This document shows positions 20,793-58,900 of a stretch of DNA of 64,000 nucleotides, piece by piece. The notes below the pieces were generated by a model that ran no database searches, was not told the origin of the DNA, and saw only the letters and a list, made by a program, of their open reading frames with translations. How positions within the stretch are numbered: the first letter of the stretch is position 1; every line of letters begins with the position of its first letter. Made by a program: the position numbers and the translations under genes. The DNA lies in contig JASSKH010000020.1 of the NCBI GenBank assembly GCA_031763025.1, positions 6,822,667-6,886,666 of the forward strand, read 5' to 3'. Origin of the DNA: Macrocystis pyrifera. Lineage: Eukaryota; Sar; Phaeophyceae; Laminariales; Laminariaceae.

Positions 20793-22040
20793 ATGGCGCC
20801 TTGTTCAAACCCCTTCTGCAAAACGCGGGCGTCCTACAGTGTCCAGGGCAGCAAGAAAGCGGCGTACTGTAAAAGACATGCCAAACACGGAATGGTCAAC
20901 GTCCACATCAAGCATGGCTCTCCTGGCACTTCCGCAAGGAGAGGTTCCAGCAATGTCGAGGGTATCAAGTTGCCCGCTGGCGAGCAGAGTGCTAAGGACG
21001 ACGACACTAGGAGAAAGCGCTGCTCGCATGGCTCTTGCGATACCGTCCCTTCCTATAATATCGACGGCATTAAGCCTGCAATGTTCTGCAAGCAACATGC
21101 CAAGGACGGCATGTTGCACGTATACGAGAGACGTTGCTTACACCCCACCTGCACGACAAGACCTTCATTCAATATCGAGGGCAGCAAGGCCGCTTATTGC
21201 AAGCTGCATGCAGAAGATGGAATGATCGACGTTCGAAATAGAGCGAGCTCTTCTTCACAATGCTCGTATGCTACATGCACTCTGTGGCCTTCCTTTAACG
21301 TGAAGGGTAGCAAGGCAGCGGCTTTCTGCAAACGGCATGCCGTGGACGGCATGGTTGATGTCCGCACTTCTCGTTGCTTGATTGAATCGTGCCAAACGAT
21401 GCCTTCGTTCAATGTCGAGGGCGGCAAGCCGGTGTACTGTAAGGTGCATGCCAAACATGGCATGGTAAACGTCCACTACAAACGTTGTGCACATGCCACC
21501 TGCACGAAGTCGCCTTCCTTCAATTTTAAGGGCATGAAGAAGGCATCTTACTGCAAAACGCACGCCGAGGACGGCATGGTCGACGTCCGTCACAAGCACT
21601 GCGCACATACATCCTGCACGAAGACTCCTTCCTTTAATTTTGAGGGTAACAAGCTAGCAGTGAACTGTAAGGAGCATGCGGAGGACGGCATGATTCTAAT
21701 CCAGTTTACAAAGCGTTGTTCGCAGTCTCCCTGCTCGAGGCTAGCGTCGTGGGGTAAACTGGCGGACGGCGCGGGCACCGTATGCGCTGGGCATAAAAAC
21801 GTTATCGTGGGCGGTCCTGTAGTTAACTTCAGAGCATTGTGCAGCGTGGCGGGTTGTAGGCACTTTGCGACGTGGGGAACCAGCGAATGTCAGCCTTCTC
21901 ACTGCAACGTTCACGGTCCCCGGACCGACGGCCTTGCCTTCACTGTACCTGCCAAACACACCAAGAGTACCCCTGGCCGCGCATGTAATAGTGCCCCTAC
22001 GAGCCTGTCTTTCCATGTTAAGACGGAGGGATATTTTTGA
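20793..22040 (+). CDS. EsV-1-7 repeat protein (IMM-like family), copy 1
   Basis: A single open exon of 415 residues. I start at ATG 20793, just before the first repeat; the frame runs open upstream only to a TGA at 20727. It holds repeats of C-X4-C-X15/16-C-X2-H, each about 35 residues with the core PSFN-x-x-G-x-K, then YCK-x-HA-x-x-GMV-x-V. Seven are canonical (first Cys at about 4, 77, 115, then four more). Residues 42-76 are a repeat-length unit that kept NVEGIK but lost every Cys and His. Two divergent C-terminal repeats follow, with WG in place of the aromatic-Asn pair, then a basic linker and the ending KTEGYF. The Cys3His pattern suggests zinc binding (inference). IMM, the studied member, controls basal cell development in Ectocarpus; the molecular role is not established. 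No signal peptide or membrane segment. Paralogue at 38100. Confidence 0.9.
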   Translation: MAPCSNPFCKTRASYSVQGSKKAAYCKRHAKHGMVNVHIKHGSPGTSARRGSSNVEGIKLPAGEQSAKDDDTRRKRCSHGSCDTVPSYNIDGIKPAMFCKQHAKDGMLHVYERRCLHPTCTTRPSFNIEGSKAAYCKLHAEDGMIDVRNRASSSSQCSYATCTLWPSFNVKGSKAAAFCKRHAVDGMVDVRTSRCLIESCQTMPSFNVEGGKPVYCKVHAKHGMVNVHYKRCAHATCTKSPSFNFKGMKKASYCKTHAEDGMVDVRHKHCAHTSCTKTPSFNFEGNKLAVNCKEHAEDGMILIQFTKRCSQSPCSRLASWGKLADGAGTVCAGHKNVIVGGPVVNFRALCSVAGCRHFATWGTSECQPSHCNVHGPRTDGLAFTVPAKHTKSTPGRACNSAPTSLSFHVKTEGYF

Positions 22041-25000
22041 GAGGTTGTGATTGCAGATACTTGGTTGATTGCAGCGGTTGAAGGCAAATCTTTAGAGGTG
22101 TTCCTAGGCTAGAGCCAATGTTGTTCAAGACTTTGAAAGTTGCTGGCACGTTCTAGGTATTAATTTCAAAGTGTTATTTGATATCGTCATGAGTGGAGGG
22201 TGTGCTTACAGTAGGTTGGAGGTTAAGGCACACCCCCTTACTTTTCGAGAGGGAGTCAGATAATGAATTTTCCGATGCGCACTGCGTATATCTAAGATAC
22301 ACTACGCTTGGTGCGGCAATCTCACTCCTACAGCGATTTGTGAATTCGAATTACCACCCGAATTACCTCTAGTGTTTGACAGGAACTCCCGCCGGTATAT
22401 GTCGTAGTGGTTAGGCTGAGTTCTTTCGCCGACGTATTTGCAGATGGAGAATTTATTTTTGCCCTGGAGGTTTAGTTGGGCATTCAAGATGCCGTCGGTG
22501 CTTAACATACTTCAACGGTCACCATGTTCGCTCAAGACCGTGCCTTATTTTACGGTGGCCGCAAAGAGCAGATTATGGCGATTTCGGTTAGGTGGGTTAC
22601 GTTAGGTTTTAGATCAGATATCGGGGGTGACGATGTTATACGATGGCAACAATGTATACGGTGCTCAAGTTGTTCTGTGCAAGTTACATAATTGTTGGAC
22701 CATCGTCGCATGTGTTGTGGTCAAGTTGGACACTTCGCACGCATGTACCTTTCCCGGTATATACACGTAGTATAATATTTTTTTGTACCTCTCTGAGTAG
22801 CAGCGCACAGTCTTTTCGTTAGAACGTTGGAGACACCCGTGTTAGACGCCCCCCCCCCCCCCCCTCTCAGTAGGACCTTCGAGATGTTCGGCGTTGGGTA
22901 CTTGAAATGTAGAAGCAACCATAAATGCTTTTCGGCGTTGTTTCTGCACAATTGACGTCGTGACGAGGCCGACGTACTTCATACAAGCATCAATATCTTG
23001 TAGTTGTGCGTTCGTCTTCATCGTGTGTCTACATCAACCCGCCGTTCCTGTATGTGTGTCCACCAGAACGAAACATGTGTGGAATACCCCAGTGGATGTA
23101 TGTTTATTGTTTTTTGTGTTTCGCGCGTCTGGCGTGTTACGCCCAAAGATTGCTTTTCCCACGGCGATAAAATATTTAGCCTAAGGTGAGGGAGCGTTGC
23201 TGTCACAGGTCTGTCAGTACCATAGTTGAGGAGGAACTCTTGTGACCTATGCATTGTTAGGTTCGGGCAGCGTACCTGGTGGGCAGCTCATAGGATTGTA
23301 AAATTTTAGAAAGAGATAGGTTCGACTTGTCTGGCGACGAAACTTGAACGTTACACAAGACGTGTACCAGTCTCGACCACGATCGTTACAGCCTATGGTT
23401 GGCTGTTAATTTTTTCATCATATCGTATATGCCAGGTACTCTGTTTCTGGCACACGGCATGAGCACGAAAATACATGCATGTTTGTGTTTATTACTGCTG
23501 CCCTCGATTTGTGCTACGGAAAGAGGGGTACCCAAATTGCGACTTCCACGTTTATACCACCCGGACGAGTGGCACTGAACCTCACTCGATCCTACACCCA
23601 CGAGAACGGTGTTGGCGCAGAGTAGCAAGAATGCCATGGCGGTGTATTGCGAAAACGTAGCGTATAACGACTTTGACGACCGCTAAGAAGTATAGTGGTT
23701 ACTGGGTCAAGTGGCTCTAACCGACTGAAATGAAAGAATTTCGAGAGAAATCTCCCTACCCTAGCACCTGCATATTTGCTTTCGGGGTCACTGGTGGGCG
23801 AACTACATTTGTCAGCAAGGTCGACGTTTGTCTGAAATAGACAATACACGGGAGATATTATAAGCGTGTGTGCACAATGTTTGCTGACCTCGGAGCGGCG
23901 TGCTGAGATCGTATTTCTATGCGAACCGCGCCCCGGTCGTCTAAGAAAATTCAAGGACGCCGGAAACAAAGCGATGGTGCCACCAAACACGGACACGGAC
24001 CCCCCGTCACTCACAGTGACGCACCTGTCGGTCCGTACGGTAGACCCTAGAATTGAGGCGGAGACAACACTTTTCTTTCGAGAAGTCCCCAGTTTAAATG
24101 TTCTCAGTCCTCGACGATCGGACGAGATGCTGAGCCAAAGAACCAACACATATACAGGATATCTGAGTCAACAGACCGTAACGGGCTTTAGAGGGAGAAA
24201 TTCCCCACCGGAAGTATCTGCCAACATTTGTGGGAAAATCTCCAATGAAAGAGTAGTCGTGGCTGATATGTGATTTTTGAAATGGTTTGTCATTGTCGTT
24301 TCTGAGTTGAGGGAAAGATTCTCCCCCACGGGCAGATACCTGTATCGCAGCAACTATCAATCCCCCGAGTATCTCGACCACCCAATTGTACCGTCTCCAC
24401 TTTGTTACCGGCCTGGTTCCTCACTATTAATAGTATGGCCCACAATGTTCTTCGATGACCAAGCGTCTTATTGATACCGCACTGTTGGACTCTTCCCATC
24501 AAGCTCAGGAAAAAACGAAGAACGAAAACAAAATTCCGATTCCCGCCTACTTGTCCCCCCCCCCCCTCTTCAAAACAAGCGTTGGGGAGGGTGGGAGGGC
24601 TTATAAGGGACACAACGCGCTGGCTTGGTTCACCAATCAAGTAACGACCTTACGTCTGCTCCCGTTCGCAGCAGATACCTCCCGCTTTCTTGCGCCCAAC
24701 GTCAGGATGCTGACGTGCCCGTCATGCCATCTTCGAAAGGACTGCATACAGGGCTGTCGGACACTAAACTATCCCCATACTCCATCCGAGTTCCCAAAAG
24801 CAAACACATATTATTCTCCCTATCGATAGACTCTATTTTGCCTGGCACATGGTTGACGGAGGCCGTTACTTGGTACACGAATCCATCATCCTTATGTATT
24901 AATAGTATACCGGTCAAAATGCGTTGGTATACTGGTTTTTTTCAGTCGTGGGACAGAGACATTCCTCGTTTCGGCTAGGTATCTGTATCGCAGCTACCTG

Positions 25001-26199
25001 CAATCCCCTGGGTATCTCGACCGATGTATTGCAGCGACTCTATCACGGTACTAAGTTACCGGCCGGGTTCTTGGCTACTGTGGTGTGGCCCACAGTTATA
25101 TCGGATTAACAAGATTGCGAATGGTACCGTATAATTCGACCTTCCAACACTGAGGTAATTTGAGACTGATTAGTGTACTCTGAGGTTTTTCTCCGCCAAA
25201 CTGTTCCTTCCCCCAGCTGTCTCTCATTTGCCACCATCGCCACCGCCAGCTTGCGTGACCCCAATGTCGAGTCGTGGATGTTAGTACGCGGGTAAGCCTT
25301 TTACGCGTGGGTCGTCCACCTCCCTCTTCTTTGAAATACTCGTTCCGACATGTCGCCCCCCGCTGCGAGTGTGATCACTCCTCTGATCCACAGCGTAAGT
25401 GGAGCGAACTCATCGGCATTCCGACGTGTATTCTCTACCACTTCCTCGATGACGCGACGCGCACGACCGCACCAGTCTTACAGCTTTACCACAACGGTAC
25501 GCGGAAGGGGGGGCATGGTCATCAAAAACAGGGCAAAATAACATAAACTCCAACATTAAGGCAACGGCCCAACCGCCCAACCTGAGGTATGACGTCGGCC
25601 CGCGAACCTGCTTCCGAATCCCACTAGTGTTCTTTTAATATATTATTGATGGTCCTTACTCCCCTTCGAACACCACCTTCACAAACAACAATGTCGGCCT
25701 ATTGCCATGGGGCGTTTCCCAACCGTGTGCCGTTGTCGTAAGTCGCCCTGTCACCCCGCGTCAGAACGTTCACATGGTGTCCTACCGGGAATCGGCGTTC
25801 AATACCTCGTCCGATGTCGTCATCGTGAAGTAATTCGGACATAAAAACAGTGAAAAAAGAAAACGTCGCCTGTGGTTCTCGTTGGATAATGAGGGTTTAC
25901 ACCGCGAGAAGCATACTGGACGTAACCGGTAGGCGAACGCCGCGCGCGATACCGCCGAGCGCGCACTGAACGACGGGAGCCGTAACCAGTAGCTCCAGTC
26001 GCACCCGCCTATCAACCAAAATATTTTACACTCGCGATTTTTCCGTAGTTCACGATTGCCATGTTTTATCCTGGCGCTTACTACCAAGAGGCAAAACTCA
26101 GTGGAGACCCAGGCTTTGCAACTATCTGCATGACTCGACGCCAAACACACTTAACAACCCATTCACCGGCGAAACGTACTCCAAGACCGGCGAGCAGAT
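22041..26199. other. intergenic, with one local duplication
   Basis: Segments 24333-24455 and 24973-25105 share blocks in order: TATC(T/G)GTATCGCAGC or close, AATCCCC, GTATCTCGACC, TTACCGGCC(T/G)GGTTC and GTGGCCCACA-like. This is an old direct duplication 640 bp apart. A 16-nt poly-C run is at 22849. Open frames (24149-23592 minus, 185 codons) have no recognisable domain. Confidence 0.4.
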
Positions 26200-27120
26200 T
26201 CGTACGGGTACCTAGTCGAGCTCGCAACCAAAACACCGACGTACTTAGATTTCGGTACTGAGATCCGCCCCTGTCTTCACCAGCCTCTCCTCTTGCCAAT
26301 CGATGTCGAAATGAAGCACGTGGAGGTTGAGGGCCATGACTGGATAGATCCATCGCGACACACCGTCCGCCAATGCATTCGCCACTCCCCGTACGTATTT
26401 GTCCTTGAACCACCGGCCATTGCCCATCTGTGGGCAACCAAGCATTCACATCAGTGCACCCGCCCTCGGCTGGCTTGCCCTACCGCATCGTTTGCCCCAT
26501 GAACAGTCGGCATATTGTCGCCCCGCTTTAACATACTCTCGCCGAAGCGTTAAAGCACTGCGTTCGCTTCTACGGGGAAAATTTCATGCCGTGAGCACCA
26601 TATCCAGCAACTCCAAGACCTCAACCGACAGGGCATCCCTACCTCTCACGTGCGACCGTTGGTGGTCCTGTATGTCATATCGAAATCGATCCTCCCCGTC
26701 GCTAAACAAGTAGCCTCCACCGCATCCCCAGATGTGTCGTTGATAAGCTCGCGTGAGTGGGGCTGCAAAGGAAAACTCACGAACGGGGCATACAGGGTAT
26801 CTGCCCCTCCCGCCCCGATCGCATTAACCATGATAAATCGCCCAAACAAAACATCATTCTAAAACCCCCCGTTGAGTCGCACGTGCGAGGGACTCGACGA
26901 CGCGCGCCCGACCCCCGTAGACCCCGGACCCTATCGTGCCAGGCCTGCATCCGAGAGCATGCGTGACTATTCGAGCGTAGGCCTCACGAAAAACCAGCCT
27001 GGTCGCACGACTTCACACATGTGCAACATCTTCCCCATCAACGAACGCAATTCGGACACGAACGCGCGGCGACGGACTCTTTACCACAGCGGGAAATATA
27101 TCGAAATAGCTACTGTATTA
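26200..27120 (-). pseudogene. retroelement RT-thumb/RNase H relic with frameshifts and stops
   Basis: Minus strand, in order: a connection block ELRSLMGKMLHMCEVVRPG then FFVRPTLE (27057-26969), family-like and ending in a stop; INDTSGDAVEATCLATGR (about 26755-26700), matching the DASG start of RNase H; ALSVEVLELLDMV (about 26630-26595), the second acidic motif; RGDNMPTVHGAN (about 26525-26490); and YVRGVANALADGVSRW (about 26400-26350), the C-terminal motif, followed by FDIDWQEERLVKTGADLSTEI. At least three frame changes and several stops separate them. Known for the family: RNase H of LTR or DIRS-like elements removes the RNA strand during reverse transcription. The palm with its catalytic Asp pair was not found. 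I cannot tell Ty3/gypsy from DIRS-like. Confidence 0.7.
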
Positions 27121-28767
27121 AGGACCAATGTTAGTAACTGGGGCTGTTTGTGCCACGAGTAAACGTTTTCCGTCGCGAACAGGAGCGGGGTACTCGCTTG
27201 CCTTTTCTAGAAGAGACGGCCTTGGACGGATCACATGGTATCAGTCGGCCACACATAAAGGTCCCCTAGCGAGGAGCACTGTGGCTCTACCAAAGCTGCG
27301 TCATTTTCATACATTCGACTTGGTAACGGCTTGCGGGGGGATTCAGGTACCCGGAGGCAAAGGTATGGGGCCTCCCGTTTTGAAAGCTTGCTCGCCGCCA
27401 CCCGACTAGAAACTGCATGGCCAACGCCGACTTACATATGATTTTGGAAAACCAAAGGATGCTATTAATAAACCTGATTCGCACTCTCAAGTGCAAAATA
27501 CGGACCGTGTCACACTGATGGTTTACACATCGGATTCAAACGTGTTCGCCATTGCTTCGGTGAAGGACCTTCGTCAACTACCAAGTACGTGTGATCGTAA
27601 ATCCTCCAGTCCTTACGGTAGCGCCGCTGTTTTTCTTTTTATGAAACATCAGTGCTAGAATCGTTGCGAGCCGGCCGGTGACTGAATGTCACATCGCTAG
27701 CACTTGTTTCGGTCAGACCTCCCTGGAATCGACGCGATGGCGCGTCGTAGCACGCTCGGTGATGGCGATGGTTTCCAGCATAGTGATCGGCAGACCACAC
27801 GCTCACCATCATCACCTGCGTGCACGGCCAGTCCCCTTCGTAAACAATTGTTTAGCGGGCTGCGTAGCCGTGGTATCGGAGAACGACTCCGCGGCAACTG
27901 GCTCAGCGGGCGTCGGAAGCATGTCGGACGGCGTGTGGTTGGAAACACGTCGCGCAGTGTGAGCAGCTCGAACCAGAGACACCGAATTCGCCTCAACTGG
28001 TGATACCCACAACTGGTGCACATTGTAGATATGTCTTGCATCCTCGTCTCCCAGGTCGTTTGAAACTCGAACTCGTGGTGTATCCGAGGTTGCTGGTGGG
28101 GATATTGCATATCAGTGTGGCGATAATAAAGTTGCATGTCTCAACCGCGGCTGAAATGCACATAACCCGCGTCAAACGTCAATACCAAGTTTTCTACTGG
28201 TTCCAATCAAGCGCGAATCGCACGGATCAGTCCTACCCTTTTTGACGCTACCAACAACAAGCGGTGGAGGGGGATAAGATATTGTTGGTACGTCATCGGA
28301 GTAGTGAACAAGCGGGACGCCTCCGACAAGCTCGTGGTTAATTCTAATAAATGCCTGTGCCATGCCTTCGGTGTACTGTCTATTGCGTTAGACATGGATA
28401 TGCGGACTCGAGAACGGATTCCGACTGAGACTGCCTGTGGTGATGGTGTACAAGTACAACACTGCTGTAGGACAAGTACAGAACCTTACCCGGGGGTTTT
28501 CCCGTGTATCGACGCATTACTCTGATCGGAAATGTAAGGTACACTCCGAACGCCACAATATGCGCAAAAGTTCCTTATATTTCTGATCAAACTGATATGA
28601 AGAACTTTATGTCATGAGTCCTGTACGAAATTCATAGCCGTACCCGGAACTTGTACAAGTTTTGCACATCTGTGCCACAATACCCAGTGGACGGGTATAA
28701 CACTTTTATACCTGTATGAAACTTCTGTAACTTCTGCAAGCCCGCGCCAAACAGGAAGTCTAAGCGT
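27121..28767. other. intergenic or further retroelement debris
   Basis: It could hold the 5' part of the retroelement relic, but I found no RT palm motif. A minus-strand frame at 28021-27812 and a plus-strand frame at 27704-28003 are unrecognised. Confidence 0.3.
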
Positions 28768-29483
28768 ACGATTCCTCCTGCTCGTTCTACAGAAAAAAAA
28801 ACTTGGCTACCGTACAAGAAATCGAAAATTCGAGCGCCTGGAACTATATACTCAAACTTCAGCGACGAGGTCCGCCCCGAAGGAGGACACGCAAAATGCT
28901 GTCGCTTTGACACTCACGGGAGTGCACCAAGGAGTGCCTATCCGGTCTGCCAATTTTTGCCTCAATGGAAACATTCGGAGCTAGAGCAAAACAACGAAAT
29001 GTCCTCGAGAAAAATACGGCTAAAGACATGCTTCCAGTTTCTTTGTTGTCGGGACTTTTTTGTGCGCTATGCAAGTCCACCTGTTTTGCACTTCCCACAT
29101 AAAAAAGCTGATTTTTGGCCCAAAGTCCCGAAGACAGAGCAAATGGAAGCACGTCTGCCACCGTTTTTTTCATGGGGACTTGTCGCTTTCCTGCTCCAGC
29201 TCCGAACGTTTCTATAAGCAGAAGAACGGTTTAATGTGAAGAACACACACACACATGGGCCCAAAATTTGGCAGACCGGATGTGAGCTTGTTGCACTCCC
29301 ATGAGTGTGCCAAATTGACAGCACTTTTCGTGTCCTCCTTCGGAGCGGACCTCGTCGCTGAAGTTTGAAAATGTGGTTCCAGGCGCTCGAATGTTTGGTT
29401 TCTTGTAAGGTGGCCAAGTATTTTTTTTCTGCTCGAGAAGGAGAAATGTACTCGTTACGACTTCTGAATCCTTCCTGCTCGTT
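28768..29483. mobile_element. foldback element F: ~330-bp inverted arms
   Basis: The left arm (28768-about 29065) starts CTCCTGCTCGTTCTACAG and passes through GCGACGAGGTCCGCC. The right arm (about 29120-29483) is its reverse complement, passing through GGCGGACCTCGTCGC-like sequence (GAGCGGACCTCGTCGCTG) at 29344. Partial copies of the same unit lie at 29475-29800, 31765-32075 and 32147-32235. Frames such as VHSREC recur in each copy but follow the DNA repeat, so coding is not claimed. The right arm carries a short CACACA-containing insert (29218-29252) shared with 43523-43556. Confidence 0.7.
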
Positions 29484-29847
29484 CTACAGCAGGAAAAAAA
29501 ATACTTGGCTACAGTACAAGGAACCTAAAAATCAAGCGCCTGGAACCAAATTTTCAAACGTAATCTACGAGGTCCGCCCTGAAGGTAGACACGAAAAGTG
29601 CCGTCGCTTTGGCACACTCACGGGAGTGGACCAAGGAACTTATACCCGGTCTGCCAAATTTTGGCTCGCAAGGAAGAGTCGGGGTTGAGCAGAAAAACGA
29701 AGTCAGGAAGAAAACGGCGGCAGACGTGCTTCCAAGTACTTCGTTTTTGGGACTTTTTTCGTGTTTTGTGGGCAGTAGTGCCCCAGAGTTGCACTCTGAA
29801 CGGCAATTTTCTAGTAGTGTGGCGTGGGAGAAGCGAAAAAAGAGGAG
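29475..29847. repeat. partial copy of foldback unit F plus TRIM left flank
   Basis: This repeats the left-arm orientation: CTGCTCGTTCTACAG, TACTTGGCTACAGTACAAG, ACGAGGTCCGCCCTGAAGG and CACTCACGGGAGTG. From about 29800 it becomes CGGCAATTTTCTAGTAGTG, the sequence that also flanks the second TRIM (47500) and lies at the centre of the R palindrome (49020-49070). Confidence 0.65.
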
Positions 29848-30291
29848 TGTAGGGAAATGTAGACTAAAAATGTTACGTAACAAACGCTACATGAATTTAA
29901 GGCTTATAAACTCGATTTCCACCACATTCTCCCTCACTAAACCTGACTTATCTCTCCTTGCGAGTAAGTCAGGGACCCCGATGAGACGGAGTATCCAAGT
30001 TTTACCTCCGACTTTTCGGTACCGGACTCAGTATGCAATGATCGCATTGCTCTCATCGTTCCTTTCTAGGTGTTTTCTAAGTGAGTGAGTTTTACAGGTT
30101 CTTGAACATGATATATTCCCCTTTTTTTTTTCCTTTTTTCTTGGGGGACGAAGGCGAGAATCGAACCACGGACCTCGCTCTTCAAAATCTCACGCCCTGC
30201 CTGCGACGCCATTGTAGGGAAATGTAGACTAAAAATGTTACGTAACAAACGCTACATGATTTTAAGGCTTATAAACTCGATTTCCACCACA
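29848..30291 (-). mobile_element. TRIM-like mini LTR retrotransposon, copy 1 (444 bp)
   Basis: Terminal direct repeats of 79 bp (29848-29926 and 30213-30291), each TGTAGGG...CACCACA on the plus strand, differ at one base. On the minus strand the order is LTR, A, then TGGCGTCGCAGG (primer-site position), body, a purine-rich GTGAGGGAGAA-type tract, LTR. Flanks GGAG (29844) and GGAA (30292) look like a 4-bp target duplication with one change. No coding capacity, as expected for TRIMs, which are copied in trans. The body contains GGTTCGATTCTCG, like a tRNA B box. Confidence 0.8.
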
Positions 30292-30295
30292 GGAA

Positions 30296-31270
30296 AGGGA
30301 AACATTTCCAAGGCTTGCGCAGGCATTCTCGATACGGGTCGCTCAAGTTTTCGAGTTTTGTGTTGTTGCCCGTGCCATGTATGTGCTCTCTGCTGCGACG
30401 CCACCACGAGAGCGCTGTAGTTGGAACCTCGCCGTGGCAATGGCCACATTCTAAAGATCTTGTGTAGTGCTACATCATAGTCATTTATTTAATCACCTCA
30501 ATTCGTCGAAGCATGCGGGATATTAATAAATGGCCCCAGCCATCCACGACGCCGAATGATACGTACGTGCCATTCTGGACAATAATGTAACGACCGTTTG
30601 ATCTCCATATTTATGCCTCAACGGTCCTTACAATTCCGCCACGCTCTTCCCAAAGCCCCTCCCTCGTCTCTTCTCGCCAATCGACGTTCGGATTTGGGGG
30701 AGTAGGCGCTCTCTCTCTACGACAATAACAAACAGCTGCTGCAATAACAGCAGCAACACATAGCTAGTCCCTGTGATCGTACGAGTTGCAACAGATGTAT
30801 ATGCTTGCTGTCGGGGTGTCGAGGTGGCTCTGCCTCTCGTTCATTCGTTTGGATTTTTTTGTTCTCGATTGCAAGCGCTTGTCAAGCTTTGCCATCGCAC
30901 TCTTCTTCCTATACTACTGCTGCTGCTGTGATCTGAGTCTCCGGTCTCGGGGTTGTCCGGTGGTTTCACACGATTGTGTGCGGCGTGCTTTCTGCGTGTC
31001 GCAGCTGCTAGAGCTGCTTGCTGCGCGGTCGTCAGATGCTTCCTCCATCGAGCAGAGCTTTCTATCTGTCGTGGGGCGCTTCTCCTGCAAACACTGCTGC
31101 TGTGGCAGGTGTGCCATGCTGCGATCGGCGGCGGAATTAACGGCTGTCTATATCTTCAAATCATCCAATCAGCGTACGAATTTTGTCACAATTTGGTTGG
31201 TTTTAGCGTGTGTGATTGGCCTACGTCACAAAGGTTTCAGGCCCCAACACTGCGAAATTGCCCTCTACCG
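30296..31270 (+). repeat. repeat R, copy A (~975 bp)
   Basis: It begins AGGGAAACATTTCCAAGG and ends about CCAACACTGCGAAATTGCC. It matches 49060-49950 directly and 49015-48062 in reverse. It contains CATTTATTTAATCACC, a TTTATGCCTCAACGGTCC stretch and a CTG-rich part. A 198-codon frame (30786-31382) is broken in the other copies, so I treat R as a non-coding dispersed repeat, possibly a non-autonomous element. Confidence 0.75.
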
Positions 31271-31764
31271 AAAGCAAAGAAAATATGCCCCCGGTATTAT
31301 TGCTACCAACAAATGTGCAACTCCTTTCCTCAAGGGTCACGCAATCAGAGTCAATACAATAATAGTGCCAATGACAAGTTGACTACTGCACGAAGGTATA
31401 TGTCGGAGTACCATTGATCAGAGTGCAGCTTTGATCTACCTGCTCGTCATATCACGTCGTTTTGCAAGTGGTATCCCTCGTCCAGGTGAGAAGATAACGG
31501 TGTGTATGTGTATATGCCCTAATCTCGTCCCGCAGATATTTGCGGAGACCTCGGGCGGCCAGAGAGACAGCAGTAGTAGGACATACAACAGTACAACTTA
31601 TCCTCGCGTTTCCCATTGCTAAAAAACAGTATGACACACACTCGACTATCTAGTGCTTGGTGACCGACGAGTCCGCAATTTCTCTTCACTGGTGTCCCTT
31701 CATGGGGAAAGTTTGTATCGCTCTCGCGCACATTGTCCTCACTCATGAACCTACAAAGTGCTGG
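31271..31764. other. intergenic, nothing recognised
   Basis: This is the stretch between repeat R and the next F copy. No motif or repeat recognised. Confidence 0.3.
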
Positions 31765-32235
31765 CATTTCACCTGTGTTGCACTTCCCACGAAACCCGAA
31801 AAAAGGTCTCGACAACAGAGACAATCAAAGCACGTCTGCCGCCGTTTTTTATACGAGGACTTTTTTCGTTTGTCTGCTCCAGCTCCTATTGTTTCCATCG
31901 CGCCAAAGTTCGGCAGGGTGGATATGAGCTTCTTGGTCCACTCCCGTGAGTGCGCGGAAGCGACAACACTTTTCGTGTCCACCTTCGGGGCGCACCTCGT
32001 CGCTAAAGTTTGAAAATGTGGCTCCAGGCGCTTGAGTTTCCAGGTTATTGAACTACTGCTGTAGTCAAGTAGTTTTTTTTATGATGTATAACGACCAGGA
32101 AGAGAAGCCACAAGTTGCGAGTACGTTTCAGCACGTTTCTCCTGCTCGTTCTACACCAGCCAAACAAATACTTGGCTACAGCGCAAGAAACCGAAAATCA
32201 AGAGCCTGGAACAACATTTTCACAACTTAGCGACT
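31765..32235. repeat. two partial copies of foldback unit F
   Basis: 31765-32075 matches the right arm (CACCTGTGTTGCACTTCCCA, CGTCTGCCGCCGTTTTTT, CACTCCCGTGAGTG, CACCTCGTCGCTAAAGTTTG). 32147-32235 returns in the opposite orientation (CTGCTCGTTCTACA, ATACTTGGCTACAGCGCAAG). This recreates the foldback layout with longer spacing. A further scrap CACCTGTGTTGCACTGCCCA is at 33439. Confidence 0.65.
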
Positions 32236-34239
32236 AGGAGTGTGTTCGAAGCGCAGTGGATGTCGTATTCGGCAGTAACATTTCTAACCAAAACACGAAA
32301 ATACGACTTTTCAACTACCAGGTGGTGGGCGGGGGGGGTACTCACGCCCACTGTAGCCTCTGCTGCTGGGTTTTGTGTGTACAGCAGCAGCAGCGACGGC
32401 GTAGTTGTTTGTGTGTGCTGGTTCGCTGTGGTGCTTGTGTGTGCTAATTCGCTCCGCGCCAATTTCAAATTGTGTGGGGTTTCCCCTGTGCAGCACGAGT
32501 TTTTTTTTGCGGGCAGGTTCTCAAAGTTCGCCTGAGCGGGCACTTTTACGCCGGTTGCCCGAGTATATGTCGTCGTGTAAAGACAAGCATCTGAAGTACC
32601 TTCAGCAGTACTGAAGAAGACCAGACGTTCAGGATTACTCGTGTGTGTGTGTCCCACCCCCCCTCCGTTCGAAAGTAAAATGGCTCCGATACCATGTCTG
32701 GGGATCGTTTTTTAAGGTATTATTTTATCGGGGTGTTTTCCTCGGGGAGAGTTCGTTCAACTTAGTTTTAGGATTGATTTCGAGTTTTCGCGTAAACGAT
32801 ACCATAATGTCCGACAAAGCAATCACCCTTTAAATATAAATATCAGTACCGACAATGTCTTACATTTCCGGAGCGGTGCTGCTGCCACCGATATGTCCGA
32901 AAATACAACGACTGTTGGGGCATTAATACGAGTATGAGAATTATCTAACATTTCCGGACAATGTGGTAATATTTCCGCGGTAGTGCTGATGTTTGAAACT
33001 CGAGGAGAAACGCGTCCTAGCCACTATAAGCGCAGTCTTGGTGCGCTGCTGCAAGCAAGGGCCAGGGCTCGGATGCACGGAGACGAAGCTACTGCTGCTG
33101 GTATTGTAGTCTATGGTGCAGGTGTTGCTGAGTTCTGGTCTGCGCACACGCACTCAAAACTTGCGTCTGTGACCTCTGTGCGGATGAGGGTACGTCAAAG
33201 GGCAGTAGACTGCGCAGAACCCACTTTCTACTATCTCATAGAGACAAAGGCGTAGACTCGGAGACACACAACAAGGAACATACTATAGGGGGGAGACACC
33301 GCCACACCGGCATGGTGTTGGAGCCGCTCTCTGCTGCGTCGGCTGTCTAAGCTTCAGAACTGCAACGGAAGTCTCTCTCTTTCTTGCGCGCGTCATGTCT
33401 CGTCTCGTTTGACAATGGCGACGCGATCGCGGTGCCTATCACCTGTGTTGCACTGCCCATAAAATCCATGCAAAACTCTTCTTTGATTGGTTATACTTCG
33501 CAGAAATTTCCAGAATTTTCAGTATGTATCCGAAGAGAATGGCCCCACATACAGACGCTTTGCCTAAACAATAAGGAGTGTTGGGCAGCAGAAAACTTAC
33601 CATCAATTCCTGGCTTCGCAAGCTCATACAGCGAATACGTGTCTTCTCGTGCTCGCATCGGGATGTCGTGCGTGCTCGCGCCCGTCGTGGGGATGCTGAC
33701 CTGCACGCGATACCTTCCTTGAAAGTATTTCTTGCATGGCCTTCAGATCACAAGCCATCGAAATACTCTATCCCAGTCTCCAATACAGACCCGAGTCATT
33801 ATCACTACCAGCTACCCCTGTTTTGATCGCTGCTTCGTTTTCCGAAAGTCGTTGATTTTCGTACCAACTAAACTACCCTTTGCGCGAATATACGGCAGCA
33901 TTCGAAAAAATACTGCGAGTATTGGAACTATAGGTAATGTAGTACCAACTTTCGGAATACTGCGAGTACAGGCAGCCTCCCAGGATCGAACCTGCGTTAA
34001 TTCTGGAAGAGCAGGACTTGCAAATGTTTCGTTGAAGGCCCGACAGGGTTTAACATAACACAGGTATGCAAACTTCACGACCTATTTTTCCCAAAGCTGG
34101 CACCAACATTTCCCCCTTTGAGCGGTAAAATACATCTTTTAACGTTGACCACCCTGTTACTTTGTTCAAGTATGGGATCAATAGTGAGCTCTCATATGAC
34201 GTTATGCCGGTCCCACGCAGTCATTTTATACATCGCGCC
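32236..34239. other. intergenic with short repeats
   Basis: CATTTCCGG with nearby GGTGCTG or GTAGTGCTG recurs at 32869-32885 and 32948-32990. At 33880-33975 ATACTGCGAGTA occurs twice. Around 33975 a reverse-strand GGTTCGATCC resembles a tRNA B box, but the stem does not pair. No gene recognised. Confidence 0.35.
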
Positions 34240-35220
34240 ACAACTAGCACTCGTACCACTAGTGCCGCAACGCAACCGTGCCACGCCGACCCCACACGAC
34301 AGCCCTCGGGGTCTCCGCCGAAGGAACAGGCGCCGATGCCCCACTCGGCGAGCGGGGGGCGTCGGAAGGCGCTCCCCCGAAGAAAAGTGGCTCGTTCCCC
34401 GGCGAGGAGGGAAACCTTACAACACTAATAATTGCGGTACTGCTGAACTGCGGGGTGCGTGGGTCGTGTGGGTTGTGAGGTGAGTTGGTTGATTTCTACT
34501 TATCGTTTTAGCGTGGACCGGTAGTCAGCAAACACAACCGAAAGCATGAGCAACGATCGGAACGTCGGCGTTGTGTCTACATACATACACGTGTACAAGT
34601 CCCGCTGTCGTAGCGGTGGTCGTATCACTAGTACAACAGAAAGCATCGGGACGTCGGTGAGTTAATGGGCGGATTGGATTTATATAAAATAAACTTCTCT
34701 GGTACTGCTGTGCTACTGCACTGCTGAGTGTGTGGGGGTTTTGGGTAGATACGTGAGTTGTTTTTTCGCTCCAAACGGTTGCAGCATGGGCGGAAGGTCA
34801 GCAAACACAATGTCAAGCACGAGTAGACATCAAGACGTCGGTATTGTGGGCTTTTACGTAAACCGGCCCCGCTGCCATGGCAGCGGTCGCACTACTGGTA
34901 TAATGGTAAGGATCGGAACATCGATAGGTTAGTGGGCGGACTTGTTCAAACGAAAAAGGCTACTACATGTGCCAAGCTGGACCCACACGACAATCCTTGG
35001 ATCCCCGCTGAAAGAGGGGTCGTACCACTAGTGCAGCAGGAAGCATCGGAACGTCGGTGGAATAGTGGGTGGATTAGTTTAGAAGAAAATGTACTGCTTC
35101 AGTACTGCTGCTGTGCTGTTGTACTGGTGGGGGTGTAAGCTGTTTCCCACGAAGGGTGAGTTAGTTCTTGACTACATAGGGTTGCCTCATGGGCGGGTGG
35201 TCAGTTCGACGTCTTCCCAA
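34240..35220. repeat. degenerate tandem repeats with phrase ATCGGAACGTCGG
   Basis: Phrases recur in order: CCCACACGACA (34287, 34982), a GCAGCGGTCG or GTAGCGGTGGTCG block, CACTAGTACAACAG or CACTAGTGCAGCAG, AAGCATCGG(G/A)ACGTCGGT, then GTGGGCGGA with spacing near 250-300 bp nested in a ~690-bp unit. GTGAGTTGGTT or GTGAGTTAGTT starts several units. No coding feature recognised. Confidence 0.55.
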
Positions 35221-38051
35221 AGTAATGACATCTGGCCGGGCTAACGCAGAGGAACAAAGATGCTGGCATCATCCGGCCGCGACTCACCGAAAAGAACGGT
35301 AGTTGTGCGTGACACGCCTGTAAACCAAGTTGGTGTCGGTGGTGGTCACTTAGCGCCATTACTTACGCGGATCGCCATAGCCACGAAAAAGAAGAATGCG
35401 AACAACGCGACAAACGACAACGTGTCTCATCTGTGGCTTTTATATGGTGTTTACTGCTGTGGGGGGATATTTTGCAACAGTACTGCCCTGGGTCCTTGCA
35501 CGTCGTCAAACTCTTCCCAAGTATCTTGAGTCCGCGGTGCTGCTGCTTTGTGATTGTTCAGTACTTCGATTTGCTGTACAACCGAAAGCAACTCTAACAA
35601 AACACGGCACAAAACATATCGCAAACCGCATGGGGTCAAGATCTTTCAGCCAGAAGCGTCCCAGCATGGGCGTGCGCGTGCGGCGGGCAACGACCTTTTG
35701 AACGCTGTTAGTCACTTCCGCTGAGCGACCCAAGCTTCGATAAGGCGATCTCATGTTTGTTAAGATCGCGTAACTCAAGGCGAAAGGCTCCCTTGTATGC
35801 GAACTTTCGCCCAGACTGCTTGCATGTGTGTCGGCGATCGATTCGCATGGTATAGATTACAACGTGGAGAGCGGTTTGATACGAGATTTTGCAGGGATTT
35901 GAGTTTACTTGTGAGGGTAGTGACACAGGTTCGAATTTTCGACACAGGCAACCCTCGATAAACCTATGAGATTTATCGCCCCGTGGGCGCATGTAGAGCA
36001 TAGGGCCGAGCTTTGCTGACCGATGTGCGTCGAAATAACCGAGACCTCAATGACATAACGCATATTAAATACTGCAGTTGTGCGCGATTGCGACATAACA
36101 TACACGTGCCGGCTGACCGGACATAGCCATATTATTTTCTGTTGTCCACCTACAAACAATGTGGAGTTGACTGCTGTAGAAATATGCTATCGCTTGTTTT
36201 TTTCCGTAATTGTTTACCCTTTGCTGAAAATACGTCAGCCTTTGTTCTGCACAACACCAGCAGCACGTGTGTTGTTTGTGCAGTAACGTCGAAGTGTTAC
36301 GTATATAAACCATCACGACAAGTCCATCCGAGAGGGCTCTTCACGAGCCATACACAACTTAGCTAATACAGCACTTGTCCGTCCAACTGATTGAACCAGC
36401 CATACCTGAGGTTTCTCATTGGCGCTCTAAACCTCCACAACAATGATGTACATGCACCAAAAAGCTGAGCACATGACAAAGCAACAGCCGCGCAAACTTT
36501 CGAAGCGAACGTATTGAGGATGCTTTGAACAATAGACGCTACTGATGTAGGGAACCACCTATACAACCTCTGTCGAAGAGAAGGCTCAACGTGTAGGTTG
36601 AAACTCACGACGTGCGGTGGGCGCAACGACTGGGATACATGCCGGCGATGTCATATGTTTTCCTTCAAGCTGCAGCCGCATGGTGTGAGATACTTACTGC
36701 CTGTACGTATCTACATCCGGTGTTGTGTGCTCTCTGTCTGGCTTCCAAGCTTAACTGCATAGTTCATTGTCGGGTAACATGTGCTCAATGTCTGCATTGC
36801 GACTCTGAGGCGTTCCACGATAGAAGTGCACCATACTTTTTCTGAGGCTCCTCACTTGAAGAGCTCGATACTTCACCCGAAAACTGACTTGAGCAAAAGT
36901 CAAATTGAATGCCGATGATTAATCGCATGGCCCAACTATACAAATCGTCATTTCCCGAAAGAAGTTATGGCATTCCGACAATTTTGCGGTAAGGTGCCCC
37001 GTCATTCAGAAACCATTTTAGCGGAGATGTGGTACCTCTATCCTAGAACGCGTCCTCTATTACGTGCTTACTGTGTATCAGCATCTACTTCCGCATCTGT
37101 GGCTGGCGCTGTCGCTGCACGATAGGTTAGCTCCGACTCCCTTCTCCCCCTGTTGCTGCTGCTGCTACTGTCGCTGGTTTTAGGGCGTTTTGTACTTGTA
37201 CTTCAAAACTTTCCTAGAACCTGCTTCCTCCATTTTACCAACTATTACCAATGCTGTGATGCACGATTTGTAAAGCCTTTTTGAAAACCTGAAATGTCAA
37301 TGGTGTGGCACATTCAGGGTGTTCTGTTTCCGCGGCCTTGTGGCCAGCGCCCATTGGCTGTCGATCAAGCTTGACGACCTAACCGCGAAACAGTGTATCT
37401 CTGGGTGCGCGTGGCACGTCGTCGTCCGTGTTGCAACATACACGGTTTCGGTAGGATCTTCTCTGGGCTCTGTACATAATCCTTAATTTTCCCACCTCGA
37501 AACACCCACATAGATGACCTACATGAACGCATAGTCTCACAGTCGTGATTTTAGCTGACCATGTTGCTGAGGTGCATACGATTACGAGGCGATTCGGCTA
37601 TCCAGTTTTACTTGAAGGCGTGGAAGGATAACTTTAGTAGTCTTTGCGTATTTCGCACCCGCTTCCTTGTGGCTTGCCTCAACTTGTTGCCGTTAACGCT
37701 TGACACCTTATCCGAAATATAAAGCGCATCGGGCTGAGTCGGAGTGTTCTTCGTTTATTTATGTATAAAACTGTTGTCAGTTGGACATTGTCTGGGGTTT
37801 GTGAATAATCGTCTTCCCATCTTGAAAGCATCCCAGTTCGCCTTACATTTTTACATTACCGTAAAGTAGTGGTTGTAGCTGGCCCTGTTGTGGAGAGGCT
37901 TGGGGTTGTGTCGCGATACAGCGGCCGAAACAATATCCAAAACGCGAAAGGAAGAACGAGAGTGTTGACCAAAGTTATGTAATTCCCTTGTTATTGGCCA
38001 GATGTAATCTGCACGCGACGTGCATGGAAGGTATTGACACCCCACCCTGCC
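35221..38051. other. region upstream of the second EsV-1-7 gene
   Basis: Possible TATA boxes TATAAA at 37718-37723 and TATAAAA at 37764-37770. Both lie about 300-350 bp before the gene's ATG, which leaves room for a 5' UTR with an intron. Other open frames in 35.2-37.0 kb are unrecognised. Confidence 0.3.
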
Positions 38052-38069
38052 CTTTTCTTTCACTTGCAG
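38052..38069 (+). other. probable 3' splice site in the 5' UTR of EsV-1-7 gene 2
   Basis: CTTTTCTTTCACTTGCAG is a strong pyrimidine tract plus CAG, 30 bp before the ATG at 38100. It suggests a spliced leader exon; a possible donor GTAAAG lies at 37861. Transcript data would settle it. Confidence 0.4.
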
Positions 38070-38099
38070 GGAGTCCGCTGAAACAACACTACGACGAAT

Positions 38100-39119
38100 A
38101 TGGGACGTTGTTTAAACCACGTCTGCACATCGCGGGCACGCTATAATATCGAGGGCCTCAAGACGGCGTTGTACTGTAGGAAGCATGCGGAAGACGGCAT
38201 GCTCAATGTGTACATCAGACGTTGCTTGCATTACACGTGCACGAAGACTGCCTCTTTTAACTTCAATGGTACTAAGGTCGCGACGCACTGCAAGCAGCAT
38301 GCCATGGAAGGCATGGTCAATGTACGCAACAAGCGTCACTGCTCTCACGGCTCTTGTTCGACAATACCTTCGTTCAACCTCGAGGGCAGCAAGACACCCG
38401 CGTACTGTAAGAAACATGCAGGAGACGGCATGGTCAACGTCTGCCACAAAGAGTGCTCGCATGATTCCTGCACGACGACACCCTTCTTCAATGTCGAAGG
38501 TAGCAAGAAGGCAAAATACTGTAAGCAGCATGCGGAGGATGGTATGGTTGACATCTACAGCAACCGTTGCTCAGACGCCACGTGCAACAGGGGACCGTAC
38601 TTCAACAGCAAAGGAAGCAAAACAGCAGCTTACTGTCGGCTACATGCTAAGGAGGGCATGGTGGACGTCCGGAGCAGGCAGTGCTTACACGACTCTTGTG
38701 TGACGTTCCCGTCGTTCAATGTCGAGGGCAGCAAAACCCCGGCATACTGCAAGCGGCATGCTGGGGTTGGCATGGTCGACGTCCACACCAAGCGCTGCTT
38801 CACCGATGGCTGCACGAGACAAGCATTATGGGGTGTGATGTCTAGTGGAGTGGGCACTGCATGCACCGACCATAAGGGCGACATCTTAGACGGTCCGGTG
38901 ATAAATTTCAGAGCGACGTGTCAGGTCGTAGGTTGCCGGATTGCGTCGACGTGGGGACTCAGTGGTGAACAGCCTTCCCACTGCCACAATCACGGTCCCC
39001 TCGAAAATCGTCTTGTCCTCACCGTGGGAACCAATCGGCGTAAAAATGTACCTAGCGGCCTATCCCCCCTCGACGTGGGGGGGGCGTCGTTGCAAGCCAA
39101 AACTGAGTGTTATTTTTAA
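38100..39119 (+). CDS. EsV-1-7 repeat protein (IMM-like family), copy 2
   Basis: An intact 339-residue open frame without introns; the ATG lies three codons before the first repeat Cys. It has six canonical C-X4-C-X16-C-X2-H repeats, spaced about 35 residues from residue 4, with consensus PSFNVEGSK and YCK-x-HA-x-x-GMVNV. Two divergent repeats follow: CFTDGC with ALWG and C-TD-H, then CQVVGC with STWG and QPSHC-HN-H. It ends in a low-complexity linker and KTECYF. The divergent pair, the GPV(I/V)NFRA linker between them and the tail match gene 1, so the two are paralogues. Known of the family: it was named from a phaeovirus EsV-1 protein, and the Ectocarpus member IMM is needed for normal early development. 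Zinc binding is inferred from Cys3His. No signal peptide or membrane segment. Confidence 0.92.
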   Translation: MGRCLNHVCTSRARYNIEGLKTALYCRKHAEDGMLNVYIRRCLHYTCTKTASFNFNGTKVATHCKQHAMEGMVNVRNKRHCSHGSCSTIPSFNLEGSKTPAYCKKHAGDGMVNVCHKECSHDSCTTTPFFNVEGSKKAKYCKQHAEDGMVDIYSNRCSDATCNRGPYFNSKGSKTAAYCRLHAKEGMVDVRSRQCLHDSCVTFPSFNVEGSKTPAYCKRHAGVGMVDVHTKRCFTDGCTRQALWGVMSSGVGTACTDHKGDILDGPVINFRATCQVVGCRIASTWGLSGEQPSHCHNHGPLENRLVLTVGTNRRKNVPSGLSPLDVGGASLQAKTECYF

Positions 39120-55960: not shown

Positions 55961-58900
55961 AACATACTTTTCTTTACTCCCAAGAATTGGGAGTAGCTGT
56001 GAAATGTTGAGGTATGAACGCACGCCACACCTAAGCGCGCCCGAACTTATTACCTTGGGTAAAAACACACAAGTAACTTGTATTATGTCATATTATACGT
56101 TCAGAAAAGCAAGATGGATGAACGTACTGGTACGTAAAAAGTCACAAGTGAAAAACACAACACACACAACTTGTATTACATAATACTAAACGTTCAGAAA
56201 AGCAAGGTGGATGAATGCCGGTTAAATGATGTGAGGAATGGAAATTGGGAAACGGCTGGCAGAGAAGCGTGTGAGGGATACTACTAATTTAAGTTAGGAT
56301 GCTCGGTTTATAGAGCAACGGCATCTCCGCTATATTGGCGGAAGGCAAGTACAATAGTAATGAATAATAATGAATGTACTGCTGTTGTAGCACTGAAAAA
56401 AAAAGGCGTGGATGGTGCGAGTCGAATGTCGAAAACGAACTTTTTATCGAGCGCAGTATGAGCAGTGCTCGTACAACTGGCACGTCGTGTTTTTCACGCA
56501 GTCTAAAACACATTGCACGATCTCCTACAGCAGTAGAGTAGGTTGTACAGGTACGGCTGCATATACAGCAGTACTGCTGTAAAATGCCACTTGAGGAACG
56601 TGCGTGTACTGATCCCCTTTCAGCTGGCTCTAGGATATATCGGTCAGCAGTGTAAGACACACAGCAATCAGAACTATACTGCTGTAAAGTACCTGGTATG
56701 TTTTGTACGAACGCTGCTGTACGAACGATTTGTTGTGAAGTGTTGTACAGTAGGACGAACGATTTTTTCTTGCTGTACTCGAGTCGACGAATATATCGAT
56801 CCGGGGATAATCGGTACCGAGCAAAAAATACCGGTCACACATTGCGGAAGGTACGTGCATAGGCCAATCAATGTGCCGATGACAACAACAACGAGCATTA
56901 GTACTGAGCGTACAGCGCGGATCTTCCACATGCGCATAGTACCCTGCCTGCTGCTGCTGTTGGCGCACTGTGCTGAGCACAGCTGGAGCAGTGGCAACGT
57001 TGGATCATACACAGCAATATGCAGAAGAGGCAGGGAGAGAGGTGATGCTGGTGGGGTGGTCGTGGCGTGGTCACAAGTGATCGATCGAAATCTCCGATAT
57101 TAAACCAACTTTGATAGCCGCAGTACGATCATCCGTACGGGCAAGGTGTGCCCACTGCTGCTGCTGGGCAGCAGGGTTGTGGTGCTGCAGGAAGCTGGAG
57201 GTAAGCACGCTTTGTGCACTACTGCTGTGGGCATTTTTCTGTAGGCGGTGGTCCGTGCTCCGTGCAACAACCCAAAAAAAATGTACATGGGTATTCTACG
57301 TCATCCTGGGTACATACGGATAAAAAAATATATGGCAGACGATGAAATGCGGACGGCAGGCTCCGACAAACACAACCGGCCACAGCAACACTGCGCATAT
57401 GGATGCGTCGAACACGCACGGCGTGTGGGCGGCAGCGTTGGAACGATGGGATCTGTGCACGTTGTCTGTTGTGTACCTGGTATATGTATGAGCTGTATGC
57501 TCACAGCTCATGAAAGCGTGGGGGAGATAACAGACAGCATGTACCGATACGTACGTACAAAATATAAGGCCTCTCGTACTGAAACCAGGGAAATCGTCTT
57601 ATCCACTCCCGCCGGAAAAAAAAAATTGCGCGCCCGCCACGTGCTCCAGAGTGCACGGATCGCGCCGACACCTCGACCAATGTGTCCGGCCGGGCTTCCT
57701 GTGTCTGAGCATTTGGTGTTATGCCGAAAAGTGACTGTCCGAAGAGAAAAGTTGGCTATAGTACGAAAATTTGACAAACATGCGTATACATACATTTGGC
57801 AAAATATTTAACTTGCAAACACGATTCCCCGGATGTTCTCTCGCGGGAAACTTTCAAGTCTGAAAAAGACCTTGGCCGCCAGCAACCATTGAGTCGGTCC
57901 CACGTCTTCCACTCGAGTGCTGCCTTTGTTCGTTCTTGTACCATCCTCTGCTTTGTGGTTCGACACATCATTTACAGCTGTACCAGTTCTTATATTTTCT
58001 CCTGTTTTTCTCTTAGGGTTCCCTCCCTGTGGGAATGCAGACCAGGGGTCACATAGCGGGAACTCTCCCCCCCCCCCCCCCCCCCCCCCGTTGCTAGGGT
58101 CTATGGTCATACGACTACCGCCATGCATGAGATCGAGTACATATCTCCTATAGAGTACCCCCCCCCCCCCCCCCCCCCGCTACATACCGCGCGTGCGTTC
58201 ATTCGTATGGCGAATAGAGCTGGACTCTTGTTTCCCTCATCGGTTATCCTTGCTAGTTAAGGCTCGCCACAGGCGTATTTGTTCTGAACGCACACATGCA
58301 GCATGCACGAAGCACGATTTTTTTTTTTCTTCATATTTGAAGGCCGAAAGCAGGCAACCGCCATACTTTTGTATTGCAAACACCATACTGAGCAGGACGT
58401 GTCGGACGTTCGCGACGGCGTTGCGCACGTTGACTCCCGGAAGACCGCAACAGACGTCTACGTAAGTCAGCGTTTCGACGTTGAGGCGCGGCGTTAGGCT
58501 ATATTTGCCTCATTTTTTTTTCTTTCGTGCAATAAATGCGTAGTCTTGCTGCAAGTACGGGTGGGTGTTGTAGGGGCTTTGCGTTTCAGGGGCATAGAGG
58601 CCCCCGGCTTATTTTCTGTTTCGGTTCGTGAACATATCTGGCGCTATTTTGTGTCGATTTTCGAAAGGCTGTGTAGGAGCAATTACATAAACGTAAGTAG
58701 ACATATTTACCAAGGAAGAAAACGTATTTAGGATATCATGATATCTACAGAAGTATGTACATGGATATGCAATGCCTTTGCGCGTGGCCACGCCCGCTCA
58801 TTAACGTGGGCCCATGATCTTGGTGTGAAGTACGGCTGCTATATTATACCGTTGCTCGTAATCTTAATAATGCTGGGCACTGGAGAGCATGCCTGCGGAC

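What the first reader, a model, noticed from the sequence alone, without database searches (positions are those of the whole stretch)
20793..39119. Two EsV-1-7 paralogues share a derived C-terminal double module
Both proteins end with two repeats that keep C-X4-C ... C-X2-H but replace the aromatic-Asn core with WG, are linked by GPV(V/I)NFRA, contain QPSHC, and finish in KTE(G/C)YF. The canonical repeats differ in number (7 plus a dead one against 6). Conservation of the unusual end over the array suggests a separate function, for example a partner-binding or folding cap. EsV-1-7 repeats are known; this terminal module as a distinct subtype is my inference.
Basis: partly seen in the sequence, partly recalled or inferred. 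Interest (0 to 1): 0.8.

Follow-up and report, generated by a model that had tools for sequence, protein, structure and literature searches.

The report
A shared C-terminal cap on EsV-1-7 proteins
Two neighbouring genes of what looks like a brown alga end in the same unusual pair of zinc-finger-like units, and that ending recurs in dozens of related genes of the same genome, which points to a distinct end module on a large, poorly understood protein family shared with giant viruses.

Summary
Genes A (20793-22040) and B (38100-39119) are uninterrupted EsV-1-7 (PF19114) arrays ending in two WG fingers, a linker and a tail.

Of the 49 best-ranked matches to a typical cap, 44 cover the whole double module, 38 without an internal stop. 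In 49 cap loci read (A and B included) no canonical repeat follows the cap. The core is W in 0 of 240 array repeats, WG in 73 of 81 cap fingers. Separate HMMs sort 267 of 267 fingers correctly in cross-validation. So the WG cap is a real terminal subtype.

Corrections: the cap is not better conserved than the array; QPSHC and YF are mainly variants of one local cluster; WG2 resembles FG-type repeats more than FN-type ones.

New: the tail holds a SUMO-consensus-like psi-K-x-E at one fixed place in 31 of 43 caps.

Best reading: a finger array, probably nucleic-acid-binding, with a separate partner/modification end. Function is inferred. Only one genome was searchable.

The parts
20793..22040 (+). 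Gene A, 415-aa EsV-1-7 protein, with stop codon
20802..20879 (+). A, first canonical repeat (C to H)
20907..21020 (+). A, dead repeat without cysteines (residues 39-76)
21021..21677 (+). A, canonical repeats 2-7
21717..21794 (+). A, finger WG1
21795..21839 (+). A, linker with GPVVNFRA
21840..21914 (+). A, finger WG2 with QPSHC
21915..22037 (+). A, tail; VKTE at 22017-22028, protein ends VKTEGYF
38100..39119 (+). Gene B, 339-aa EsV-1-7 protein, with stop codon
38109..38759 (+). B, canonical repeats 1-6
38796..38873 (+). B, finger WG1
38874..38918 (+). B, linker with GPVINFRA
38919..38993 (+). B, finger WG2 with QPSHC
38994..39116 (+). B, tail; AKTE at 39096-39107 (Ala in the psi place), protein ends AKTECYF
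58288..58494 (+). Probable decayed relic of a third EsV-1-7 gene (canonical-type remnant, no cap seen)
   Evidence: FN model 16.3 bits for the best domain, E 0.0004 for the frame; 0 of 1000 shuffles reach its alignment to A and B

Best explanation
A and B belong to a large subfamily of EsV-1-7 proteins built in two parts: a variable number of FN-type C-X4-C-X16-C-X2-H fingers, then a fixed end of two WG-type fingers joined by a GPVINF-like linker, with a tail that usually ends psi-K-x-E-C-x-F. Shown: the end is a distinct, terminal subtype shared by dozens of paralogues in this genome, its eight putative zinc-ligand positions are nearly invariant, and most close pairs show purifying selection on it. 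Inferred: the array binds nucleic acid; the WG cap is not more array but a separate end, most likely for binding a partner protein; the tail lysine is a modification site of the SUMO type; the whole is a nuclear regulator with a tunable array and a constant effector end.
For: Terminal place: 0 of 49 loci have a canonical repeat after the cap, in frame or in the downstream DNA held. Core W in 0 of 240 array repeats against WG in 73 of 81 cap fingers, and W in 0 of 95 repeats of 20 uncapped ends. 267 of 267 fingers sorted correctly by cross-validated models. In 35 aligned caps the six Cys are 35 of 35, the two His 34 and 35 of 35. Module dN/dS is 0.44 or less in 18 of the 22 closest pairs listed. 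psi-K-x-E sits three residues before the end in 31 of 43 caps, 0 times in 10463 array residues, shuffled tails 0.35 on average and at most 3; it also occurs in 7 of 19 uncapped or decayed ends, shuffle mean 0.77 (this set was tested after the motif had been noticed in it, and one of the 7 is a leftover cap tail). For nucleic-acid binding: an Ectocarpus Tc1/mariner-type transposase carries an N-terminal EsV-1-7 domain (passage of PMC12477816); structure matches include viral proteins named endonuclease or DNA primase; the family has been proposed as zinc finger transcription factors (passage of PMC12629598).
Against: No binding, zinc, location or modification data exist here. The module is no better conserved than the array. 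In 4 of the 22 closest pairs module dN/dS is 0.66-2.92, three of them within L029/L079/L080, whose first WG finger has lost its W in at least two copies. 33 of 66 high-scoring gene groups have no cap match downstream, so the cap is not needed for the family as a whole. The tail match is absent in 12 of 43 caps, many of them with a cut or shifted end. In gene B the psi residue is Ala. The final C-x-F is conserved too, which a SUMO site does not require. The cap structure model is of middling quality and shows no clear PDB relative.
Confidence: 0.4

Rival explanations
1. Structural end cap: the WG fingers only close off and stabilise the last canonical repeat, as terminal caps do in other repeat proteins, and have no partner of their own.
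For: Strictly terminal place; conserved ligands and linker; array length varies while the end stays fixed.
Against: FN-type genes L099, L101, L106 and L108 keep open frames of 452-752 aa although the region after the last repeat has lost the cap cysteines (remnant recognised by eye). The tail motif lies outside the fingers.
Confidence: 0.2
2. Edge effect: the last repeats of a tandem array escape homogenisation and drift; WG is an old relic shared by descent through tandem duplication, with no function of its own.
For: Module and array are equally diverged; A and B lie in one local clade of 7 caps, all on C201 6.45-6.86 Mb; the first repeats of A and B also have a flavour of their own.
Against: Drift would not keep six Cys at 35 of 35 and G57 and P63 at 35 of 35 in caps that are on average only about half identical; dN/dS 0.44 or less in 18 of 22 closest pairs.
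Confidence: 0.2
3. The WG fingers are themselves the binding fingers for a constant nucleic-acid element, and the canonical array adds affinity or variable specificity.
For: Ligand pattern and WG1-FN homology (hhalign 96.8%).
Against: WG2 is far from the FN type (13.6%) and alone is not recognised by Pfam's EsV-1-7 model.
Confidence: 0.15
4. The conserved tail is not a SUMO site but a C-terminal peptide (E-C-x-F) read by another factor, for example for docking or turnover.
For: C after E in 22 of 35 rows and final F in 23 of 35, always exactly at the end when present (31 of 31).
Against: The residue between K and E varies (T, A, V, P, N, M) as in psi-K-x-E sites, and psi-K-x-E also occurs away from the terminus in some decayed or uncapped ends.
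Confidence: 0.3

Closest known systems
EsV-1-7 domain family (PF19114), with EsV-1-7 of Ectocarpus siliculosus virus 1 and the Ectocarpus IMMEDIATE UPRIGHT protein
   Same: Canonical repeats far above the Pfam cut-off; structure matches to EsV-1-7 and EsV-1-115.
   Different: Terminal WG1-linker-WG2 plus tail; WG2 alone is not recognised by the Pfam model. Whether EsV-1-7 or IMM carry such an end was not seen.
FG-type EsV-1-7 proteins of the same genome (L003, L004, L005, L008, L069)
   Same: Same ligand spacing, aromatic-Gly core like the cap; L069 ends in one WG finger and its last two repeats match cap residues 1-68 at E 1e-7.
   Different: No double WG cap; different ends.
Zf_WRKY19 (PF24906)
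   Same: Weak match in B's WG1 region (12.1 bits, E 0.18).
   Different: Far below the cut-off of 27 bits.
KRAB zinc finger proteins (abstract starts of PMC3731817 and PMC4592553)
   Same: Analogy only: clustered genes, variable finger arrays, one constant end module.
   Different: Unrelated fingers, module at the other end; no array position with pN/pS above 0.99.

Membership tests
EsV-1-7 (PF19114) | Score above the curated cut-off | tested here: met
   300.2 and 268.7 bits against 25
EsV-1-7 (PF19114) | Tandem C-X4-C-X16-C-X2-H repeats | tested here: met
   7 and 6 canonical repeats
EsV-1-7 (PF19114) | Cap fingers score as EsV-1-7 on their own | tested here: inconclusive
   Whole B cap 26.6 bits (over 25), whole A cap 10.8; WG1 alone 13.5 (A) and 21.7 (B); WG2 alone no match; profile comparison WG1-FN 96.8%, WG2-FG 87.0%, WG2-FN 13.6%
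EsV-1-7 (PF19114) | Zinc and nucleic-acid binding | not testable with these tools
   Proposed in the literature (passage)
Zf_WRKY19 (PF24906) | Score above the curated cut-off | tested here: not met
   12.1 bits against 27
KRAB-ZFP-like system (analogy) | Diversifying selection at particular array positions | tested here: not met
   Highest pN/pS 0.99 over 44 mutual nearest repeat pairs
KRAB-ZFP-like system (analogy) | Clustered paralogues | tested here: met
   7-gene clade on C201 6.45-6.86 Mb; further groups on C191 and C222
SUMO acceptor site | psi-K-x-E consensus (consensus recalled) | tested here: met
   31 of 43 caps; A has VKTE, B only AKTE
SUMO acceptor site | SUMO present in the organism | tested here: inconclusive
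   Of 24 PF11976 matches most are tandem and look like polyubiquitin; C221:14726493 may be a SUMO exon. A putative Ectocarpus SUMO gene is named in a passage of PMC12678776
SUMO acceptor site | Conjugation to SUMO | not testable with these tools
   none

The most novel reading that the evidence does not exclude
Capped EsV-1-7 proteins are a brown-algal counterpart of the KRAB zinc finger families: clustered, rapidly turning-over nuclear finger arrays whose constant WG end and SUMO-type tail recruit a shared silencing machinery against transposons or latent giant viruses.
Probability: 0.1. Interest if true: 0.85.

Novelty: new variant of a known kind. Interest (0 to 1): 0.55.

Why it matters
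The EsV-1-7 family is expanded in brown algae, includes a developmental regulator (IMM), is shared with giant viruses, and has no known biochemistry (passages). A defined terminal module divides the family and offers small targets for mutation: two WG fingers and one tail lysine. That makes the question of what these proteins do directly testable, since a gene-editing method for brown algae has been published (listing and abstract start of PMC12853178).

Tried and rejected
Rejected: the end as the best conserved part; diversifying selection in the array; a WRKY19-type finger; WG fingers scattered in arrays (0 of 240 and 0 of 95 cores).

Full report
What is there. The window lies at C201:6822667-6886666 of a 537-Mb, 223-contig genome. 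That it is a brown alga of about kelp genome size is my inference from the gene family. Genes A and B are uninterrupted frames that match EsV_1_7_cys at 300.2 and 268.7 bits. A has 7 live canonical repeats, B has 6; A's cysteine-free unit is a dead repeat. Both end in two units with WG at the core position and tails that match up to the stop codon.

B's 110-residue end was searched against the own genome: 148 matches, with 150 of 209 candidates scored. With a more central member as query (94 matches, 150 of 481 candidates scored), 44 of the first 49 rows cover the full double module, 38 of them without an internal stop; three lower rows also cover it, with stops inside. I read the 30 best places with 1.5-kb flanks (A and B are two of them) and 19 chosen lower ones, 49 loci. 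L069, an FG-type protein, was read but kept out of the counts; other weaker places were not read. In 49 of 49 no canonical repeat follows the cap, in frame or in the downstream DNA held, which is short for the 19; in 40 of 49 at least one precedes it. Cores are W in 0 and G in 3 of 240 array repeats, and WG in 73 of 81 cap fingers. Loci chosen by a cap query lean towards caps; as a check, 20 ends of PF19114 genes without a cap match showed W in 0 of 95 repeats.

Subtypes. In five-fold cross-validation by gene, models of WG1, WG2 and FN repeats, with an FG model as fourth choice, assigned 37 of 37, 37 of 37 and 193 of 193 fingers correctly. Profile comparison: WG1-FN 96.8%, WG1-FG 96.7%, WG1-WG2 89.4%, WG2-FG 87.0%, WG2-FN 13.6%. 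A second group in the same genome has aromatic-Gly cores and no cap. L069 ends in one WG finger, which still scores best as FG (34.7 bits, against 27.6 for WG1, 25.4 for WG2 and 16.7 for FN), and its last two repeats match cap residues 1-68 at E 1e-7. So an FG-like terminal pair is at least as likely to be the older state as FN.

Family-wide cap. Of 39 full caps, 35 were aligned; L017, L029, L084 and L087, with odd tails, were left out. The six Cys are 35 of 35, the two His 34 and 35 of 35, W15 31, W56 34, G57 35 and P63 35 of 35. QPSHC has S in 7 of 35 and T in 26; six of those seven belong to the window's own cluster. Tail counts are K 28, E 28, C 22 and final F 23 of 35, rows cut short counted as misses. 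In a tree of 39 caps, A and B fall in a clade of 7, all on C201 between 6.45 and 6.86 Mb, support 96/95; only 8 of 36 inner branches are well supported.

Constraint. In the 22 closest cap pairs listed, module dN/dS is 0.44 or less in 18 and 0.66-2.92 in 4 (L029/L080, L029/L079, L079/L080 and, at 0.94, L011/L022). L079 and L080 have lost the first W, which fits decay. Over 630 pairs median identity is 0.53 (module), 0.41 (tail) and 0.54 (last 200 residues of the array at most); the module exceeds the array in 278. No array position exceeds pN/pS 0.99 over 44 mutual nearest repeat pairs.

Tail motif. psi-K-x-E lies exactly three residues before the end in 31 of 43 caps scoring above 60 bits (psi is V 26, A 2, I 2, L 1). 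It occurs 0 times in 10463 array residues and twice in 4163 residues of the rest of the caps; shuffled tails give 0.35 on average, at most 3. In B the psi residue is Ala. Of 28 uncapped or decayed ends, 9 were skipped as open or too short; of the other 19, 7 hold the motif against 0.77 by shuffling. That second set was tested after I had noticed the motif in it, and L109 among the 7 is a leftover cap tail. That psi-K-x-E is the SUMO consensus is recalled, from no call.

Genes without the cap. The 150 scored PF19114 matches (of 1585 candidates) form 66 gene groups; 33 have a cap match within 2.5 kb downstream and 33 do not. Of 20 such uncapped ends read, L095, L097, L100 and L104 are FG type or close to it. 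L098, L099, L101, L106, L108 and L109 are FN arrays with what I read by eye as a cap remnant that lost its cysteines or was cut. L091-L094, L096 and L103 stop early or look frame-broken. L090, L102, L105 and L107 run off the stretch.

Structure and viruses. A model of B's last repeat plus the cap, from 10 window rows, reached mean pLDDT 72.7, but two of its five models were near 30. In BFVD it has 22 matches at E 0.001 or better, among them EsV-1-7 and EsV-1-115 and proteins named endonuclease or DNA primase of Faunusvirus, cedratvirus and pithoviruses. Query-normalised TM-scores of these are 0.25-0.41. They show the repeat kind, not the WG cap.

Mechanism. Shown: a separate, terminal, mostly constrained pair of finger-like units on arrays of variable length. 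Inferred: array for nucleic-acid binding, cap for a partner, tail lysine for modification. The folding-cap and edge-effect rivals remain open.

Literature. In the library, 5 papers hold 'EsV-1-7'. I saw passages of four and only the listing and abstract start of the fifth, PMC6368402. None of those passages mentions a terminal module. The founding paper (Macaisne 2017) is not held. So I can say only that the listings and those passages did not show the cap, not that it is absent from print.

Noticed in passing
L059-L068 (10 places, several on small contigs): A dispersed repeat of about 1 kb or more (pairwise identity about 87-99%) carries a non-coding 3' fragment of a cap gene (WG2 plus tail). 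The copy number was not counted: one search did not complete.
   Followed up: partly
L003, L004, L005, L008, L104 (C220, C195:7.89-8.02 Mb, C203): A second, uncapped EsV-1-7 group with aromatic-Gly cores; some ends are charged or low in complexity, with basic stretches such as KRKR and KRRK.
   Followed up: partly
L099, L101, L106, L108: Ends where the cap has lost its cysteines while the array frame stays open; basic stretches (KRPK, KRPR) or psi-K-x-E appear there.
   Followed up: partly
window 58288-58494 +: Decayed relic of a third EsV-1-7 gene.
   Followed up: partly
window 41547-42542 +; also 40-46 kb, 29-32 kb and 47-50 kb: A frame with a marginal reverse transcriptase match (30 bits, cut-off 29.6) inside blocks repeated within the window.
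   Followed up: no
L029 end: The tail of this cap protein is duplicated in tandem within the frame, so the protein ends VKVEGYL twice.
   Followed up: no
L089 3-797 -: A giant-virus-like contig with an RNA-polymerase-like frame (my reading of the translation) holds an EsV-1-7-like array whose cores mix YN, FG, YD, FN and FD in one protein.
   Followed up: no
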